In this document: piece after piece, positions 48,594 to 54,321 of the stretch | How positions within the stretch are numbered: the stretch's first letter is position 1 | How the letters are laid out: the number at the start of each line of letters is the position of its first letter | NCBI GenBank assembly: GCA_003222395.1 | Contig: QHWB01000032.1 | Span: 1 to 64,000 of the forward strand | Direction of reading: 5' to 3' | DNA length: 64,000 nt | Source of the DNA: Acidobacteriota bacterium | GTDB lineage: Bacteria; Acidobacteriota; Vicinamibacteria; Vicinamibacterales; CAVVIG01 | Position numbers and translations under genes: made by a program | The notes under the pieces: generated by a model | What the model saw: only the letters and a program-made list of their open reading frames with translations | Told to the model about the DNA's origin: nothing | Databases searched by the model: none

Positions 48594-48872
48594 CTAGGCG
48601 AGGCGGATCCGGAGCGGCTTGAAATAGTCGCAGCTGGCGCAATTCCGGACGTCGAACTGGTAGCCGACAACCGGGAACCACATCGGATGCACGCAGAACA
48701 GCAGGTGGCCGTCTTCGATGGTGTGGAACCCGATGTCGGGTGGGATGCAGGCCGTACGGCGGCTGTACCAGCAGGCGCGATGACGGCGTTCGGGACCGTC
48801 CGGCTCGCGGGCGGCGTTCGACTGACCGCCCGACGCCGGATGTGGTGAGCTATTTGGTCTGCTGTGGAACAT
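48594..48872 (-). CDS. Small Cys-containing hypothetical protein
   Basis: The last 60 residues look like a real protein: 'RRTACIPPDIGFHTIEDGHL', 'LFCVHPMWFPVVGYQFDVRN' and 'CASCDYFKPLRIRLA', with a CxxC pair that could bind a metal. The first 30 residues are low-complexity, and the proposed ATG at 48872 lies inside the yggX 3' end (23-nt overlap), so the true start may be further in. No family recognised. The 170 nt between it and the KGG gene contain no gene I can support. Confidence 0.4.
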   Translation of the reverse strand: MFHSRPNSSPHPASGGQSNAAREPDGPERRHRACWYSRRTACIPPDIGFHTIEDGHLLFCVHPMWFPVVGYQFDVRNCASCDYFKPLRIRLA

Positions 48873-49182
48873 AGCCGGGTGGAAGCGCGGCGCCTTCGCC
48901 GAAGAAAAAATCTTCCATGTGCTTGGCTACCAGTTCCTGGGCTTCCTTCTGCCACGGCATGAGGCGGTACTCGTTGAGGATCATTTTCATGCGATCCTCC
49001 CAGAGCTTCCACGCCTGCGCGGAGATGTTTTCAAAGATGCGCTGACCGAGCTCGCCGGGCCACGGCGGCGCGTCGAGGCCGGGCAGCTCCTTTTGGAACT
49101 TCTTGCAGAACACCATGCGGCCGGACTTGTTGCCGACCAGCTGCTGCTCGTGTCCGGTTGTATGCCCGCAGGTATCAGCCAT
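48850..49182 (-). CDS. yggX: Fe(2+)-trafficking / oxidative-protection protein YggX
   Basis: Residues 23-100 match YggX: 'MVFCKKFQKELPGLDAPPWP', 'GELGQRIFENISAQAWKLWE', 'DRMKMILNEYRLMPWQ' and 'MEDFFFGEGAALPPGYVP', with the single conserved Cys. YggX protects Fe-S clusters from oxidation. The ATG at 49182 adds 22 residues (MADTCGHTTGHEQQLVGNKS) not usual in the family; ATG 49116 would give the classical roughly 88-residue form. Neither has a clear Shine-Dalgarno. It overlaps the end of the ATP-grasp gene by 8 nt. Confidence 0.87.
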   Translation of the reverse strand: MADTCGHTTGHEQQLVGNKSGRMVFCKKFQKELPGLDAPPWPGELGQRIFENISAQAWKLWEDRMKMILNEYRLMPWQKEAQELVAKHMEDFFFGEGAALPPGYVPQQTK

Positions 49183-50614
49183 GTTCGCGATTGTACTGCA
49201 TCGATCCGCCGGCCAGCACCGGGAATTCGGGATCGATCGCGAAGGTCAGCTCGGCGTTCGCGGCGCGAAGCGCGCGATCGACGTCGATCGGCTGTTCGGC
49301 GCGCGCGAAGATGAAGCCGAGATAGCTCGCGCCTTCGGGCAGCGGCAGCAGCAGCTGATCCTGCTTCGCCGTGATCTGCACGTCGTCGATGTTGCGCATC
49401 CGCTTTGCGGCGTCGACGCCTTCAACGCCGCGAAAGATGCCGCGTCTCGGAATCGGAATCATCATTACGCCGGACGCGCGCGGCTCGCGCCGCCACGCGC
49501 CCGGCGATTCTCCGAGCGCGTGCAGCAACAGGAGCTCCTCGAGTGGGATGTGGGACTCGGGATTCGGGATTCGGGATTTGGGATTCGAATCCCGAAGCCC
49601 GAATCCCGAATCCCGAATCGCGGCCGGCGCGAAGCGCAGCGTGCGCGCGCACAGCCCGCCGATCGGACGCGCCGCGACTTCCAGCACGAAGACGTCGACT
49701 CGTTCAGAACCTGTCCCTCGGCCAGGCTCGAGACGACCCTGAGGCGCTCGAAGGGCTGCTGCCTGAACGCGACACTCGGCGTGGATGGGACCATGGCGCA
49801 GGCCGATCGCGCGCACGGCGTTTTCGACGGTGCCGACGATCGCCCGCTGGACGGCGTCGGGCGCCGACGACGGCGTCACGTAGAGCGTTTCTTCGAAGAA
49901 CGGGCCGTCGAGCGGATCGGGTTTATCGAATATCGCCAGCGTATGAAGCGTGCCGTGATGCAGCACGCCTTCGAGCGCGAACTCGCGGCCGGGAATGAAG
50001 CCTTCGATGAGGATCGACTCGTGCGCTTCGTCGCGCTCCGCGCGGATGTCGGGCGACTCCAACAACACGCGCAGCCGGTCGACGGCGGCCGCAAGCGACG
50101 CCGGATCGTCCGCGCGCATCACGCCGCGGCTGCCTGAGAGCGCGACCGGTTTGATCACGCAGGGATACTGTGGTTGCTGGTTGCTGGTTTCTGGTTGCTG
50201 GGGGCTGGGCGCTGGGAGCTGGTTGATCGTCGTCGAAAAGAACCACGGCACTGGCAGTCCCGCGTGGCGGAAGCGTTCGCGGGTGCGGAGTTTGTGGCGC
50301 GCAATGGCTGCCGCCTCGGGCGGATTTCCCGGCAGACCGAGCGCCTGCGCAACGCGAGCGGCGATCACCGTCGGCCGATCGCCGACGACGAGGATGCCGT
50401 CGATCGGCCGCAAGCGTGCCGCATCGACAATCGCATCAACCGTCCGCGGCTCGTCATAGAAGCGAATCGGAATCGCGTGGTCCTGCCACGGGTCTTCGAG
50501 CATGTGGCAGCGATCGGTCGCGAAGACGAGCTCGACGCCGAGCCGCGCGGCCGCTTCACCGAACGACCGCGTCTGATATCCCGTCGTCGTCGCGAGCAAC
50601 AGAACCCGTGGCAT
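49175..50614 (-). CDS. ATP-grasp ligase (L-amino-acid/carboxylate-amine ligase type) with repeat insertions
   Basis: The 479-residue enzyme has the preATP-grasp fold ('MPRVLLLATTTGYQTRSF'), ATP-binding 'YPCVIKPVALSGSRGVM', 'ESILIEGFIPGREFALEGVL' and the Mg site 'VDVFVLEVAARPIGGLCA', followed by a C-terminal domain like that of L-amino-acid ligases ('SYLGFIFARAEQPIDVDRAL'). It joins a carboxylate to an amine using ATP. Two heptamer repeats are in frame: residues about 131-148 ('INQLPAPSPQQPETSNQQPQ') and about 332-357 ('IRDSGFGLRDSNPKSRIPNP'). ATG 50614 lies 32 nt after the TAG of the radical SAM gene, so the two are probably co-transcribed and may act on one product. Confidence 0.85.
   Translation of the reverse strand: MPRVLLLATTTGYQTRSFGEAAARLGVELVFATDRCHMLEDPWQDHAIPIRFYDEPRTVDAIVDAARLRPIDGILVVGDRPTVIAARVAQALGLPGNPPEAAAIARHKLRTRERFRHAGLPVPWFFSTTINQLPAPSPQQPETSNQQPQYPCVIKPVALSGSRGVMRADDPASLAAAVDRLRVLLESPDIRAERDEAHESILIEGFIPGREFALEGVLHHGTLHTLAIFDKPDPLDGPFFEETLYVTPSSAPDAVQRAIVGTVENAVRAIGLRHGPIHAECRVQAAALRAPQGRLEPGRGTGSERVDVFVLEVAARPIGGLCARTLRFAPAAIRDSGFGLRDSNPKSRIPNPESHIPLEELLLLHALGESPGAWRREPRASGVMMIPIPRRGIFRGVEGVDAAKRMRNIDDVQITAKQDQLLLPLPEGASYLGFIFARAEQPIDVDRALRAANAELTFAIDPEFPVLAGGSMQYNREHG
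49543..49620 (+). repeat. GGGATTC heptamer inverted repeat in frame in the ATP-grasp gene
   Basis: Units GGGACTC, GGGATTC, GGGATTC, GGGATTT and GGGATTC (to 49587) are followed by the reverse complement series AATCCCG (49588-49620). The two arms make a long hairpin. In the minus-strand frame they encode 'RDSGFGLRDSNPKSRIPNPE'. The motif also occurs at 46118 and, as a single arm, at 2937. Confidence 0.92.
50171..50223 (+). repeat. TTGCTGG heptamer array in frame in the ATP-grasp gene
   Basis: Seven consecutive 7-nt units (TTGCTGG, TTGCTGG, TTTCTGG, TTGCTGG, GGGCTGG, GCGCTGG, GAGCTGG). On the minus strand they encode a Gln/Pro/Ser-rich linker before the ATP-binding domain. Confidence 0.9.
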
Positions 50615-50618
50615 TCGT

Positions 50619-50644
50619 TCCAGCTCCCAGCTCCCAGCTCCCAG
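50619..50644 (-). repeat. GAGCTGG heptamer array before the ATP-grasp start codon
   Basis: Three and a half units of GAGCTGG (minus strand) run from just after the radical SAM stop to within 5 nt of the ATP-grasp ATG. The GGGAG in each unit could serve as the ribosome binding site, so the repeat may set translation of the ligase gene. Confidence 0.8.
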
Positions 50645-50646
50645 CA

Positions 50647-52065
50647 CTAAATCAGAGCCACCTGCTCTGGATTCGGCTCCGCTCAACAGTACCAAGGCTC
50701 ATTGAGATAGGGCACGGTCGCGCGATCGCGGAATGGTCTCGCCGAAGGAGACGGCATCCCGGCGCGATCATGCGCGAGCCTGCTCACTTCTTCGAACACC
50801 ACCCGGCGATCCGCGGTAAGGCGCATGCCGACGATCGTGCTCACCTCCTGATGCAACGCGTCGACCGCGCGATCGGGATGCGTCCAGCGATAGGTGAGCG
50901 TCTTCGGATCGAACGCGCCGACATGCGGTCTCATCTCCGGTGTCGTGAGCAGCCGCGAACCCTCGGGCAGCAGCAGGCGGATGGCGAGCTGAATCGGCGC
51001 GACGTGGTCGACGAGATCGAGCCCGGCGATCGTGTCGAGCAGATCGCAATAGCTCTCTGGCGTCAGCCACGGATGAAAGGCGACGAACGTCGGGATGAGC
51101 GTGACGCCGGCGGCCGCGCAGACGTCGACCGCATCGAAGAAGTCGGCGCGCGTGTGCCCTTTGTCGAAGATCGTGAGCACACGATCGTCCAGCGATTCGA
51201 TTGCGCTCGTGACGAACGCGCATCCCGTTTCGGCGAGCCGCGGCAGCAGCGCGCGGTGCCGAAGCAGGTGCTCGACCTTGATTGTCACGTCGTAGCTGAC
51301 CGAAGGGTGCGCCGCATGGAGCGCTTCGACGATCCGCATCGCGTGCGTGGGACCGTTGAAGAAATCTGGATCGCCGAACGTGATGTGCCCCGCGCCGCCG
51401 GCGACCTGCGCCGCGACGTCGGCGAGGACGACGCCAGGCGGGACGATGCGGAATTGCCCGTTGTAAATCGGCACGACCGGGCAATGGCGGCACAGATGTT
51501 TGCAGCCGCGGCTCGCTTCGGTGTACCCCACCGCACGTGTCGTCCCGTCGGGCAATTGGAGCGTGGCGTATTTCGAGAGCGGAGGAAGCGTCGATCGATC
51601 GGGGACGAGGAAGCGAATCCGCGGAATCTGTGGCGCGGGCCTTTCAGGCCCGCGTTGGCGGCCCTGAAAGGCCCGCCCCACAGCGCCCTGTGTTGTGGCG
51701 CCGGCCCACTGCGTCAGCTCTTCCTCGAATTCGCCGCCGAACACCGCGTCGACGCCAATCGATCGGAGCCACTGCCCGTTGAGCGGCGCGTAGAGCCCGT
51801 ACGCGCAGATTCGCGCCGACCGGTTCAGCGCGCGCGCCTTCGCGATGACGGGCGCGGCCAGGCGCGTGGCCGTGTGCATCGGGAGATGGAACGCGATGAC
51901 GTCGGCCGACTTGACGTCGGCATCGCGCAGCCGCTCCTTCGACACGTCGACGCAGACGACGTCCCAGCCGCCGGTGCGCAGCCAGGCCGCAGGCGACGCG
52001 AGTCCGAAGGGCTGGCGGCCCATTTCGTAGGTGCTGATGAGAAGCGCTTGCATTCTGTCGACCAT
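50647..52065 (-). CDS. Radical SAM selenoprotein with C-terminal CUAEP tail (TGA read as Sec)
   Basis: An N-terminal B12-binding-like Rossmann domain (about residues 5-120) is followed by a radical SAM barrel with the cluster motif 'ASRGCKHLCRHCPVVPIYNG' (CxxxCxxC) and 'HITFGDPDFFNGP'. The apparent stop at 50685-50683 is TGA. Reading it as selenocysteine (residue 461) gives '...LNEPWYC-U-AEPNPEQVALI' ending at TAG 50647. C-U-A-E-P is the tail I know from a named radical SAM family, CUAEP/CCAEP. A 6-bp hairpin with a GG-containing loop follows the TGA (50669-50653). A REP-like insertion sits at about residues 128-146. The ATP-grasp gene is next downstream. The reaction catalysed is unknown. 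Confidence 0.85.
50653..50669 (-). promoter_or_regulatory. Candidate bacterial SECIS element
   Basis: On the minus strand the 17 nt form CAGAGC-AGGTG-GCTCTG, a perfect 6-bp stem with a 5-nt loop containing GG. The loop GG lies 20 nt after the TGA, within the 16-37 nt spacing described for bSECIS elements recognised by SelB. It is part of the coding sequence of the tail. Confidence 0.7.
51629..51682 (+). repeat. REP-like inverted pair in frame in the radical SAM gene
   Basis: The left arm 51629-51654 (TGTGGCGCGGGCCTTTCAGG then CCCGCG) and the right arm 51659-51682 (CGGCCCTGAAAGGCCCGCCC then CACA) are inverted copies separated by 4 nt. Here the GTGG feet face outward, the reverse of the arrangement in allB and glcE. 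It encodes 'GAVGRAFQGRQRGPERPAPQ'. Confidence 0.9.
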
Positions 52066-52121
52066 CTGCCTCGCCGATGCTCAATCAACATTCTGACATA
52101 TGGTCTGTTAGACTCGCGCGC

Positions 52122-53405
52122 ATGGGCATCGCCCGCCCGCGCACCGCGCATCCGCCCGGCCTGTACGTGATGTTCTTCACCGAGCTGTGGGAGCGCTACA
52201 GCTTCTACTCGATGATGGCGATTCTGTCGCTGTACATGAACGAAGCGCTCCACTTCGACGTCGCGCACGTCGGCCGCGTCTATGGAGCGTACACGGCGGG
52301 CGTCTATTTTCTGCCGCTGTTCGGCGGCCTGCTCGCCGACCGCGTGCTCGGCTTCAACCGCGCGATTGTCGGGGGCGGCGTTCTGATGATGTTCGGGCAC
52401 CTCGTGCTCGGCATCGAATCGCTGCCGTTCTTCTATCTCGGACTCGTACTGCTGGCGTCCGGCAGCGGCCTGCTGAAGCCAAATGTCTCGACGATCGTCG
52501 GCAACCTCTATCGCGACCGTCCCGACCTGCGCGATCAAGGCTTCAACATCTTCTACATGGGGATCAACCTCGGCGCCTTCTTCGCGCCGCTGGCGGTGTC
52601 GTGGCTGCGCACGCGCTACGGCTGGAGCATCGCGTTCATGTCGGCCGCGGTCGCAATGCTGTTGTCGCTGCTGGTCTATACGGGGTTCAACCGGCATGTT
52701 CGAGATGCGGCGGCGAGAGTCGAAAAAGGATCGGCCGAGGAGCAGTCGGTCCCGCCCGACGAGGCGCGCTCCCGCGTGATCACGCTGCTCGCCGTGTTCG
52801 CGATCTCGACGGTGTTCTGGCTCGCCTTCTACCAGATTTTCTACACGTTCACGTTCTGGGCGCGCGACAACACGATCACATCGTGGCCGCCGGAACGGTT
52901 CCAGGTCTTCGAGCCGCTTGGCGTCATCCTGCTCTCACCCGTGCTCGTCGCCGTGTGGGTCTGGCTCCAGCGGCGCAGGCGCGAGCCGTCGACGCCAGTG
53001 AAAATGCTCCTCGGCGTCGTCCTCGTCGCAGCGGCGTTCGGCCTGCTCGCATCGGCCGCGCTCGGCGGCGGCGATGCCGGCCGCGTGTCAGCGCAATGGC
53101 TGATCTGGGCCAACGTGCTGATTGCGATTGGCGAAATCTGTCTGAGCCCGATGGGGCTCTCGCTCGTCAACCGGCTCGCGCCGCCGAGGAGCCGCGGCCT
53201 GCTCATGGGCGGATGGTTCGTGAGCCTCGCGCTCGGCGGCTACCTCGCCGGCTACATCGGCGGCCGTTGGGACCAGATGCCGCACAGTCGCTTTTTCATG
53301 ATGGTCCTCGCGATCCTGATCGCGACGGCGCTGCCCCTCAGCTTCATGATCCCGCAGATCAAGCGCACGCTGCACCGGGCCGAACCGGCGGCGATGGCAC
53401 AATAG
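52122..53405 (+). CDS. POT/PTR2-family proton-dependent peptide transporter
   Basis: The 427-residue, roughly 12-helix carrier has the POT signature 'FFTELWERYSFYSMMAILSL' (ExxERxxYY-like), 'LLADRVLGFNRAIV', 'GSGLLKPNVSTIVGNLY' and 'NIFYMGINLGAFFAPL', all in the substrate and proton path of di/tripeptide symporters. It is shorter than the usual 490-500 residues, which suggests a lack of the two extra helices. ATG 52122 is preferred over 52077, which adds an unrelated leader. It is divergent from the radical SAM gene; a weak promoter-like pair (TCAACA, 18 nt, TAGACT) lies in the gap. Confidence 0.88.
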   Translation: MGIARPRTAHPPGLYVMFFTELWERYSFYSMMAILSLYMNEALHFDVAHVGRVYGAYTAGVYFLPLFGGLLADRVLGFNRAIVGGGVLMMFGHLVLGIESLPFFYLGLVLLASGSGLLKPNVSTIVGNLYRDRPDLRDQGFNIFYMGINLGAFFAPLAVSWLRTRYGWSIAFMSAAVAMLLSLLVYTGFNRHVRDAAARVEKGSAEEQSVPPDEARSRVITLLAVFAISTVFWLAFYQIFYTFTFWARDNTITSWPPERFQVFEPLGVILLSPVLVAVWVWLQRRRREPSTPVKMLLGVVLVAAAFGLLASAALGGGDAGRVSAQWLIWANVLIAIGEICLSPMGLSLVNRLAPPRSRGLLMGGWFVSLALGGYLAGYIGGRWDQMPHSRFFMMVLAILIATALPLSFMIPQIKRTLHRAEPAAMAQ

Positions 53406-53409
53406 CGCC

Positions 53410-54321
53410 ATGGCCCTCGAAGAATACAAGCGGAAGCGCGACTTCAAGAAAACGCCGGAGCCGGAAGGCAAGCTGCATCCAACGAAGGAACGCGGACGGT
53501 TCTTCTGCGTCCAGAAACATCTCGCGAGCCACCTTCACTACGATTTCCGGCTCGAGCACAACGGCGTGCTCCTCTCGTGGGCCGTGCCGAAGGGACCATC
53601 GCTCGATCCGAAGACGAAGCGGCTGGCGATGAAGGTCGAGGATCACCCTTACGACTACGGCGAATTCGAAGGCGTCATACCCGAAGGGTACGGCGCGGGC
53701 ATCGTCATGCTGTGGGACAAAGGTACGTGGACGCCGGAAGTCGCCGACGTCGAAGCGGCGCTGAAAAAGGGCGACCTGAAGTTCACGCTGAACGGCTACA
53801 AGCTGAAGGGATCGTGGGTGCTCGTCCGCACGGGCGGCCGCTATCCCGGCGCGCGCGGCGATGGAAACCGTTCGTGGCTGCTCATCAAGCATCGCGACGA
53901 ATGGTCGGGCGACGTCGACATCACCGACTTCGCGCCGAAGAGCGTGAAGAGCGGCGGCGACTTCGAAGACATCCTCGGCGAGGACGCGCCGGCGATCTGG
54001 CTCTCGAACCGTCCCGCGAAGGGCGGCGACGCGGGCGCGATGCTCGCGGCAATCATCGACAAGGTTGCCCGCCTGAAAGGTGAACGCGCAAGCGACACAA
54101 GGAAACAAAAGACACAAAGGACACAAAGACAAGACCAATCTCAAAGCGGACAGCCGCCGGAAATCACGACAACGAGAAAGGATCGAGCGTCAGGCGCGAA
54201 GGGTCCGCAACCGCCGGGCGCTCCCGAAGCGGAAAATCGCCGCGAACCACCGCGGCGAGCGAGCAAGCGAGCCGCGACAGGCGCGCGGGCGTGGGGCCCC
54301 GCGCGCAAAGTAAAAAGATGA
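53410..54321 (+). CDS. Stand-alone LigD-type 3'-phosphoesterase domain protein
   Basis: Residues 1-190 match the PE domain of bacterial LigD: 'YKRKRDFKKTPEPEGKL', 'FFCVQKHLASHLHYDFRLEH' (metal His/Asp), 'LLSWAVPKGPSLDPKTKRLA', 'VEDHPYDYGEFEGVIPEGYG' and 'SWLLIKHRDEWSG'. The PE domain trims 3' ribonucleotides or phosphates during NHEJ. No ligase or Ku gene is in the window. After about residue 215 the sequence is low-complexity and repeat-derived (KQKTQRTQRQDQSQ), apparently replacing the natural C-terminus. It is 4 nt from the transporter and overlaps the next gene as ATGA. Confidence 0.87.
   Translation: MALEEYKRKRDFKKTPEPEGKLHPTKERGRFFCVQKHLASHLHYDFRLEHNGVLLSWAVPKGPSLDPKTKRLAMKVEDHPYDYGEFEGVIPEGYGAGIVMLWDKGTWTPEVADVEAALKKGDLKFTLNGYKLKGSWVLVRTGGRYPGARGDGNRSWLLIKHRDEWSGDVDITDFAPKSVKSGGDFEDILGEDAPAIWLSNRPAKGGDAGAMLAAIIDKVARLKGERASDTRKQKTQRTQRQDQSQSGQPPEITTTRKDRASGAKGPQPPGAPEAENRREPPRRASKRAATGARAWGPARKVKR
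54095..54133 (+). repeat. ACACAAAGG-type repeat at the 3' end of the LigD-PE gene
   Basis: Units ACACAAGGA, ACACAAAGG and ACACAAAGA occur in tandem, preceded by CGCCTGAAAGG (54070-54080), a half of the REP-like module. It resembles the ACACAGAGA/ACACGGAGAC repeat at 63107-63440. Confidence 0.7.

What the first reader, a model, noticed from the sequence alone, without database searches (positions are those of the whole stretch)
50647..50700. Radical SAM gene continues through an in-frame TGA into a C-U-A-E-P tail: a selenoprotein
The sequence directly shows TGT TGA GCG GAG CCG followed by nine further sense codons and TAG. If TGA is Sec, the tail is C-U-A-E-P-N-P-E-Q-V-A-L-I. I know CUAEP/CCAEP as the defining tail of a radical SAM (seleno)protein family. 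A conventional gene call stops at TGA and loses the probable active or binding site. This implies the host has SelA/SelB/SelC/SelD, none of which is in the window. The reaction of this family is not known to me, and its tight link with an ATP-grasp ligase gene is a clue to an undescribed modification or biosynthesis system.
Basis: partly seen in the sequence, partly recalled or inferred. Interest (0 to 1): 0.92.

Follow-up and report, generated by a model that had tools for sequence, protein, structure and literature searches.

The report
Selenocysteine-tailed radical enzyme with ligase partner
A bacterial gene that ordinary software would cut short at a stop codon really continues through it with the rare amino acid selenocysteine, and the enzyme it makes is inherited almost always together with one peptide-bond-forming ligase, which points to an unknown small-molecule pathway that can now be tested.

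Summary
Confirmed. The minus-strand gene 50647-52065 encodes a radical SAM protein whose in-frame TGA (50683-50685) is read as selenocysteine, ending C-U-A-E-P-N-P-E-Q-V-A-L-I. NCBI already has this family (NF040546, 'CUAEP/CCAEP-tail radical SAM (seleno)protein'; 632 bits here). Among 126 distinct homologues, 98 have TGA and 28 a Cys codon at that position. A 7-bp hairpin just after the codon is kept by compensating changes in TGA forms (5.9 of 7 pairs) and lost in Cys forms (2.7; p=6e-14), as expected of a bacterial SECIS element. The host has tRNA-Sec, SelA, SelB and SelD. New, as far as the held papers show: across 396 genomes of the phylum the gene and its neighbouring ATP-grasp ligase occur together (63 both; 2 and 5 alone; p=2e-64), even where they are not neighbours. 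The ligase's nearest solved relative makes Met-Gly. The radical SAM protein's nearest characterised relative, ArsL, moves an aminocarboxypropyl group from SAM to arsenic and also ends in a vicinal Cys pair. Best guess (about 30%): aminocarboxypropyl transfer to a soft acceptor held by the Cys-Sec pair, then ligation to a second amino acid. Arsenic genes are absent nearby, so the acceptor is unknown.

The parts
50647..52065 (-). rsam-CUAEP gene: radical SAM selenoprotein of 472 aa from the first possible ATG (the start at 52053, MQALLIS.., fits the homologues better), U461, stop TAG 50647-50649
   Evidence: one TGA; NF040546, 631.7 bits with read-through against 612.2 cut at TGA; alignment
50683..50685 (-). 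TGA codon read as selenocysteine (U461), preceded by Cys460 (TGT)
   Evidence: Cys codon at this position in 28 of 126 distinct homologues
50652..50670 (-). SECIS-like hairpin: 5' arm 50664-50670, loop AGGUG 50659-50663, 3' arm 50652-50658; starts 12 nt after the TGA. In this copy 6 of 7 pairs form (the outermost does not)
   Evidence: covariation over 98 TGA forms, absent from 28 Cys forms
51481..51504 (-). CxxxCxxC (C188, C192, C195), ligands of the radical SAM [4Fe-4S] cluster
   Evidence: invariant in 34 aligned CUAEP proteins and in ArsL; ligand role from knowledge of the superfamily
49175..50614 (-). ATP-grasp ligase of the L-amino acid ligase type, near-obligate partner; starts about 33 bp after the radical SAM stop codon
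   Evidence: Pfam ATP-grasp_4 + ATPgrasp_N + LAL_C2; nearest solved relative 3vot, BL00235, 238 bits and best Foldseek match, E 2e-31; co-occurrence 63/2/5/326
48850..49182 (-). YggX-like Fe(2+)-trafficking protein, overlapping the ligase stop by 8 bp; the only copy in this genome
   Evidence: PF04362 117 bits, NF003817, single copy; beside CUAEP genes in several lineages
48597..48782 (-). unannotated small Cys-rich protein region, possible fourth gene (HRxCWYxRRT..HTIxDGxLxYCxHPM..NCxxC)
   Evidence: conserved in about 15 loci of the group, no Pfam family
52077..53405 (+). POT/PTR2 peptide-proton symporter, divergent neighbour; association with the system only suggested
   Evidence: PF00854 193 bits; next to CUAEP in the same order in both orientations, but not in other lineages

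Best explanation
(1) Shown by comparison: the gene is a genuine selenoprotein of the NF040546 family; UGA at codon 461 is decoded as Sec by SelB with a hairpin directly downstream. (2) Shown by comparison: it works with one ATP-grasp ligase, with which it co-occurs almost without exception, often next to an iron or Fe-S delivery protein (YggX or NFU). [quoted passage not shown] the C-terminal Cys460-Sec461 pair holds a soft acceptor (a metalloid, metal, persulfide or selenide) at the active site; the product is a methionine- or glutamate-like amino acid, which the ligase, like the Met-Gly ligase BL00235, joins to a second amino acid. Sec would be favoured over Cys for tighter binding or faster, reversible exchange of a soft ligand. 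The confidence given is a blend: about 0.97 for (1), 0.9 for (2), 0.3 for (3).
For: Selenoprotein: family score; U/C interchange and invariant E-x-W-x-C-[U/C]-x-E-P; hairpin 6.13 of 7 pairs in 47 TGA forms against 4.56 +/- 0.12 with partners shuffled in columns and 2.7-3.7 when slid, 3.0 in 10 Cys forms; repeated on 51 new TGA forms (5.75) and 18 Cys forms (2.5); pooled p=6e-14; hairpin goes with Sec in 6 of 6 independent pairs that differ, p=0.03; machinery in the same genome: tRNA-Sec, SelA 542 bits, SelB E=3e-93, SelD 344 bits; SelB in 45 of 47 Sec-form genomes against 5 of 10 Cys-form. Partner: 63 both, 2 rSAM only, 5 ligase only, 326 neither of 396 genomes, p=1.7e-64, with 19 genomes where they are on other contigs or far apart. 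Mechanism: ArsL is the nearest named family (280 bits), its C-terminal RCC pair aligns with C-U, and ArsL's ACP transfer is published (PMC8552651; Yao et al. 2024 as cited in PMC12159101); three of four ArsL plasmid clusters looked at also hold an ATP-grasp gene; ligase nearest to BL00235 by sequence and fold, which makes Met-Gly and Met-Met (PMC6920838).
Against: No selenium measurement exists. Two Sec-form genomes lack a SelB above cut-off (one 75% complete, one 95%). The SelB/Cys correlation is not significant once relatedness is allowed for. The single-sequence fold of the window's own tail is not more stable than shuffles (z=0.75).
Confidence: 0.6

Rival explanations
1. The TGA is an ordinary stop; the protein ends at WYC and the downstream AEP is chance or a sequencing error.
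For: The truncated protein still scores 612 bits; one in-frame TGA is the usual sign of a stop.
Against: Conserved AEP with synonymous codon changes in 98 TGA forms from many genomes and several phyla; Cys at the position in 28 homologues; hairpin tied to TGA; complete Sec machinery. The isolate Thermomicrobium roseum DSM 5159 has the same TGA and AEP.
Confidence: 0.02
2. The C-U tail is a redox relay, not a substrate clamp: it forms a selenylsulfide that reduces or protects the enzyme's own Fe-S cluster or a partner, and the system belongs to iron or Fe-S upkeep.
For: YggX (23 of 61 loci) and NFU (19 of 61) beside the gene; NadA and aconitase-type Fe-S enzymes beside it in some other loci. 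Sec in redox pairs is common in known selenoproteins (general knowledge).
Against: The near-obligate partner is an amino acid ligase, which has no evident role in cluster repair. YggX is also present in many genomes without CUAEP (178 of 396 have it).
Confidence: 0.25
3. It is a B12-dependent radical SAM methyltransferase, as its fold suggests, and the ligase acts on the methylated product.
For: Foldseek best matches include OxsB, TsrM and MgmA; weak PF02310 B12-binding match, below cut-off (26 of 32 bits).
Against: The closest fold match is AprD4, which from general knowledge does not use B12, and the closest sequence family is ArsL (280 bits), far above any B12 methylase model (at most 34 bits).
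Confidence: 0.1
4. It makes an organoarsenical exactly as ArsL does, with arsenite as acceptor.
For: Nearest characterised relative ArsL; vicinal Cys/Sec pair at the C-terminus suits As(III).
Against: In 141 CUAEP loci (2.16 Mb) no ArsQ, ArsB, ArsC, ArsR, ArsN1 or cluster-MFS homologue at E<1e-6; distant ArsM-like hits in 2 loci and an ArsH-like hit in 1.
Confidence: 0.12

Closest known systems
NF040546 CUAEP/CCAEP-tail radical SAM (seleno)protein (NCBIfam)
   Same: Full-length match, 632 bits over a cut-off of 500; same C-terminal C-[U/C]-A-E-P tail; the Thermomicrobium roseum record carries the same annotation.
   Different: Nothing tested sets this protein apart. The hairpin, the ligase pairing and the Sec/Cys switches are additions to what the model's name says.
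ArsL, arsinothricin biosynthesis radical SAM protein (NF040542, RCCLKC tail)
   Same: Same fold length and invariant core (CxxxCxxC and about 45 further residues), about 32% identity, vicinal Cys pair at the C-terminus, ATP-grasp gene in several clusters.
   Different: Scores 280 bits, below the ArsL cut-off of 450; lacks RCCLKC; has a longer linker and Sec; no ars genes around it.
BL00235 L-amino acid ligase of Bacillus licheniformis (PDB 3vot)
   Same: Best solved relative of the partner ligase over its whole length, 238 bits, Foldseek E 2e-31.
   Different: About 25% identity; BL00235 is not known to me to be tied to a radical SAM protein; substrate of the partner is unknown.
Radical SAM selenoprotein TrsS (NF045646) and other recently listed selenoproteins
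   Same: Radical SAM protein with Sec, listed in the 2026 review PMC13188914.
   Different: A different family; the review does not mention NF040546 or CUAEP.
AprD4, OxsB, TsrM, MgmA (radical SAM enzymes with an N-terminal Rossmann or B12-type domain)
   Same: Overall fold.
   Different: 12-19% identity; not the C-terminal Cys-Sec tail.

Membership tests
NF040546 CUAEP/CCAEP-tail radical SAM (seleno)protein | score above the curated cut-off (500 bits), full length | tested here: met
   631.7 bits, profile 2-467 of 468
NF040546 CUAEP/CCAEP-tail radical SAM (seleno)protein | C-terminal C-U/C-A-E-P tail | tested here: met
   CUAEP at 460-464 with TGA read as Sec
NF040546 CUAEP/CCAEP-tail radical SAM (seleno)protein | radical SAM CxxxCxxC motif | tested here: met
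   C188, C192, C195 invariant; PF04055 47.6 bits
Selenoprotein (bacterial, SelB-dependent) | in-frame UGA aligned with Cys in homologues | tested here: met
   98 TGA, 28 TGC/TGT forms
Selenoprotein (bacterial, SelB-dependent) | SECIS hairpin directly 3' of UGA | tested here: met
   covariation with shuffle, slide and Cys-form controls; binding to SelB not tested
Selenoprotein (bacterial, SelB-dependent) | tRNA-Sec, SelA, SelB, SelD in the genome | tested here: met
Selenoprotein (bacterial, SelB-dependent) | selenium present in the protein | not testable with these tools
   needs 75Se labelling or mass spectrometry
ArsL (NF040542) | score above curated cut-off (450 bits) | tested here: not met
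   280.2 bits
ArsL (NF040542) | RCCLKC C-terminal tail | tested here: not met
   CUAEP instead; only the vicinal pair is shared
ArsL (NF040542) | ars gene cluster (arsM, arsQ, arsN1) | tested here: not met
   and window genes
ArsL (NF040542) | ACP transfer from SAM | not testable with these tools
   needs enzyme assay
L-amino acid ligase (partner protein) | ATP-grasp fold with LAL C-terminal domain | tested here: met
   PF13535 91.5 bits, PF18603 46.9 bits over cut-off; 3vot best match
B12-dependent radical SAM methyltransferase | PF02310 B12-binding domain above cut-off | tested here: not met
   26.1 bits against 32.1

The most novel reading that the evidence does not exclude
A selenium-dependent two-enzyme biosynthetic pathway of soil and groundwater bacteria: a Cys-Sec-tailed radical SAM enzyme makes an aminocarboxypropyl-type amino acid on a soft acceptor other than arsenic, and a dedicated L-amino acid ligase turns it into a peptide-like metabolite, perhaps one that handles iron or a metalloid.
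Probability: 0.25. Interest if true: 0.85.

Novelty: new member of a known kind. Interest (0 to 1): 0.6.

Why it matters
Gene callers drop the most conserved end of this enzyme. The near-perfect pairing with a ligase whose nearest solved relative makes Met-Gly, and the kinship with ArsL, turn 'function unknown' into a short list of assays. Cultured organisms with the Sec form exist: Thermomicrobium roseum DSM 5159 and Solirubrobacter taibaiensis KCTC 29222 (L178).

Tried and rejected
1) Single-sequence folding of the window's tail: not better than shuffles; kept only as context, the argument rests on covariation. 2) Arsenic as acceptor: searched 141 loci with ArsM, ArsQ, ArsB, ArsC, ArsH, ArsR, ArsN1, aquaporin, MFS and GTP-binding proteins of ArsL clusters; nearly nothing. 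3) ArsL-cluster ligases as the closest kin of the CUAEP ligase: rejected as evidence of common descent of the pair, since BL00235 scores higher. 4) YggX as obligate partner: rejected, it is in 178 of 396 genomes. 5) POT transporter, LigD phosphoesterase and YvcK neighbours: treated as synteny of the order, not as parts of the system. 6) Neighbours of CUAEP in lineages without the ligase next door are varied (integrase, aconitase, NadA, arginase, dioxygenase) and gave no common theme beyond some Fe-S enzymes. 7) Papers: no held paper contains CUAEP or CCAEP; the Haft papers are not held, so a description there cannot be excluded.

Full report
The observation. The minus strand of the window reads TGT TGA GCG GAG CCG AAT CCA GAG CAG GTG GCT CTG ATT TAG at 50688-50647. 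The frame from 52065 is open apart from this one TGA and, read with TGA as Sec, gives 472 residues ending CUAEPNPEQVALI. Homologues suggest that the real start is the ATG at 52053.

Identity. The protein matches NCBIfam NF040546, 'CUAEP/CCAEP-tail radical SAM (seleno)protein', over 466 of 468 positions at 631.7 bits (cut-off 500); cut at the TGA it scores 612.2. The second family is NF040542, ArsL, at 280 bits (cut-off 450), so it is a relative of ArsL and not ArsL. Pfam gives Radical_SAM above cut-off and a B12-binding match below it. An AlphaFold2 model from 34 homologues has mean pLDDT 91.7 and still about 83-85 in the tail; its best solved neighbours are AprD4, OxsB, TsrM and MgmA.

Is the TGA read as Sec? 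Four lines agree. First, homologues: in 396 genomes of the same phylum 61 carry the family above cut-off, most with exactly one TGA. Among 57 with a readable tail, 47 have TGA and 10 have TGC at the same codon; a second, independent sample of genome contigs gave 51 new TGA and 18 new Cys forms. The residues E, W, C460, [U/C]461, E463 and P464 are invariant in a 34-sequence alignment, and the codons for A, E and P behind the TGA vary synonymously, which is what translation beyond the TGA predicts. Second, a hairpin: positions 15-21 and 27-33 after the first base of the TGA pair in 6.13 of 7 cases in the first TGA sample; shuffling partners within columns gives 4.56 +/- 0.12 (maximum 5.0 in 2000), sliding one arm gives 2.7-3.7, and Cys forms give 3.0. 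In the second sample the figures are 5.75 against 5.06 +/- 0.08 (maximum 5.29), and 2.5 for Cys forms; pooled, Sec against Cys forms p=6e-14. The 5-nt loop is mostly AGUUN or AGGUN. On a tree built without the tail there are at least 11 Sec/Cys switches, and in independent pairs the hairpin goes with Sec six times to none, p=0.03. Third, machinery: the window's genome has tRNA-Sec (62.5 bits, and ARAGORN anticodon TCA), SelA (542 bits), SelD (344 bits) and SelB (E=3e-93). Fourth, SelB is present in 45 of 47 Sec-form genomes and 5 of 10 Cys-form genomes; this last point is not significant after allowing for relatedness, and one of the two Sec-form exceptions is a genome only 75% complete.

The partner. 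The next gene, 49175-50614, starts about 33 bp after the radical SAM stop codon and encodes an ATP-grasp protein with an L-amino acid ligase C-terminal domain. Ligase genes of this kind lie beside the CUAEP gene in 35 of 61 loci, on either side and on either strand. A profile of these ligases searched in the same 396 genomes finds 68 at E<=1e-60. Set against the radical SAM gene (fragments included): 63 genomes have both, 2 the radical SAM gene only (genomes 74% and 71% complete), 5 the ligase only, 326 neither; Fisher p=1.7e-64 (genomes are related, so the p-value is nominal). In 19 genomes the two lie on different contigs or far apart, so this is not mere synteny. The window's genome has no second ligase near this score (653 bits, next 55). 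The closest solved structure is BL00235 from Bacillus licheniformis by sequence (3vot, 238 bits) and by fold (E 2e-31); BL00235 makes Met-Gly and Met-Met (PMC6920838).

Other neighbours. A YggX-like Fe(II)-trafficking protein (48850-49182) overlaps the ligase by 8 bp and is the only copy in the genome. YggX occurs at 23 of 61 loci and an NFU-type Fe-S carrier at 19 of 61; both recur in other phyla, and in the 35 contigs with enough flank the two never occur together. YggX is widespread without CUAEP (178 of 396 genomes), so this is a helper at most. The divergent POT transporter, LigD phosphoesterase and YvcK genes look like local synteny of the order.

How it may work. ArsL, the nearest characterised relative, cleaves SAM to a 3-amino-3-carboxypropyl radical and attaches it to arsenite (PMC8552651; Yao et al. 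2024 as cited in PMC12159101). ArsL and CUAEP proteins share CxxxCxxC and about 45 further invariant residues, and ArsL ends in KRCCLKC, whose CC pair aligns with the C-U pair. ArsL plasmid clusters of Alicyclobacillus, Priestia and Pantoea also hold an ATP-grasp gene, though not Pseudomonas amygdali, and those ligases are not specially close to the CUAEP ligase (89-132 bits). Putting this together, I think the likeliest course, at about 30%, is ACP transfer to a soft acceptor held by Cys460-Sec461, followed by ligation of the resulting Met- or Glu-like amino acid. Arsenic itself is unlikely in the usual setting, since ars genes are nearly absent from 141 CUAEP loci. The steps shown by sequence are the Sec codon, its hairpin, the machinery and the pairing; the chemistry is inference. 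The stated confidence of 0.6 is a blend: about 0.97 for the selenoprotein, 0.9 for the ligase partnership, 0.3 for the chemistry.

Known or new. The family and its possible Sec were already in NCBIfam, and the Thermomicrobium roseum record is annotated with that name but ends at the TGA. No held paper mentions CUAEP, a 2026 review of prokaryotic selenoproteins does not list NF040546, and no held paper joins arsinothricin with ATP-grasp. The two Haft papers on new selenoproteins are not held. I therefore file it as a new member of a known kind, with the ligase pairing and the conserved hairpin as additions that may be new. The genome belongs to Acidobacteriota, probably Vicinamibacterales: the contig of G077, which is in the window's order, has the same length (82,006) as the record titled Vicinamibacterales bacterium.

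Noticed in passing
window 48597-48782 (-): Unannotated small protein region with four conserved Cys (HRxCWYxRRT..HTIxDGxLxYCxHPMxxPVVxYxFDxRNCxxCDxF), next to yggX in about 15 distinct loci, no Pfam family. It looks like a metal-binding miniprotein.
   Followed up: partly
own genome G000:C26:9514-10446 (L196): The selD gene carries one in-frame TGA within the match, so SelD is probably itself a selenoprotein, as in many bacteria.
   Followed up: no
L201 2439-3671, L202 1659-2882, L203 6578-7780: ArsL-type plasmid clusters in Alicyclobacillus, Priestia and Pantoea carry an ATP-grasp ligase gene near arsL, which suggests peptide-linked arsinothricin derivatives. No held paper joins the two terms.
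   Followed up: partly
G325:C1:2473953-2475471: A divergent relative of the partner ligase (292 bits) sits next to yggX in a genome without any CUAEP gene above cut-off.
   Followed up: no
L106 (G001) and L065 (G295): CUAEP genes whose tail cannot be read in frame: a possible frameshift in L065 and a degenerate or divergent tail in L106.
   Followed up: no
window 53410-54321 (+): Stand-alone LigD 3'-phosphoesterase gene, conserved in position across the order.
   Followed up: no
window 50615-50646 (-): The gap between the radical SAM stop and the ligase start is made of GAGCTGG direct repeats; similar short repeats also lie inside the window's ligase gene near 49550-49620 and 50170-50220, adding insertions that the homologues lack.
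   Followed up: no
L115, contig CALQBJ020000119.1: A record titled Bifidobacterium breve MAG carries an Acidobacteriota-like CCAEP locus with the order's synteny, most likely a mislabelled or contaminated bin.
   Followed up: no
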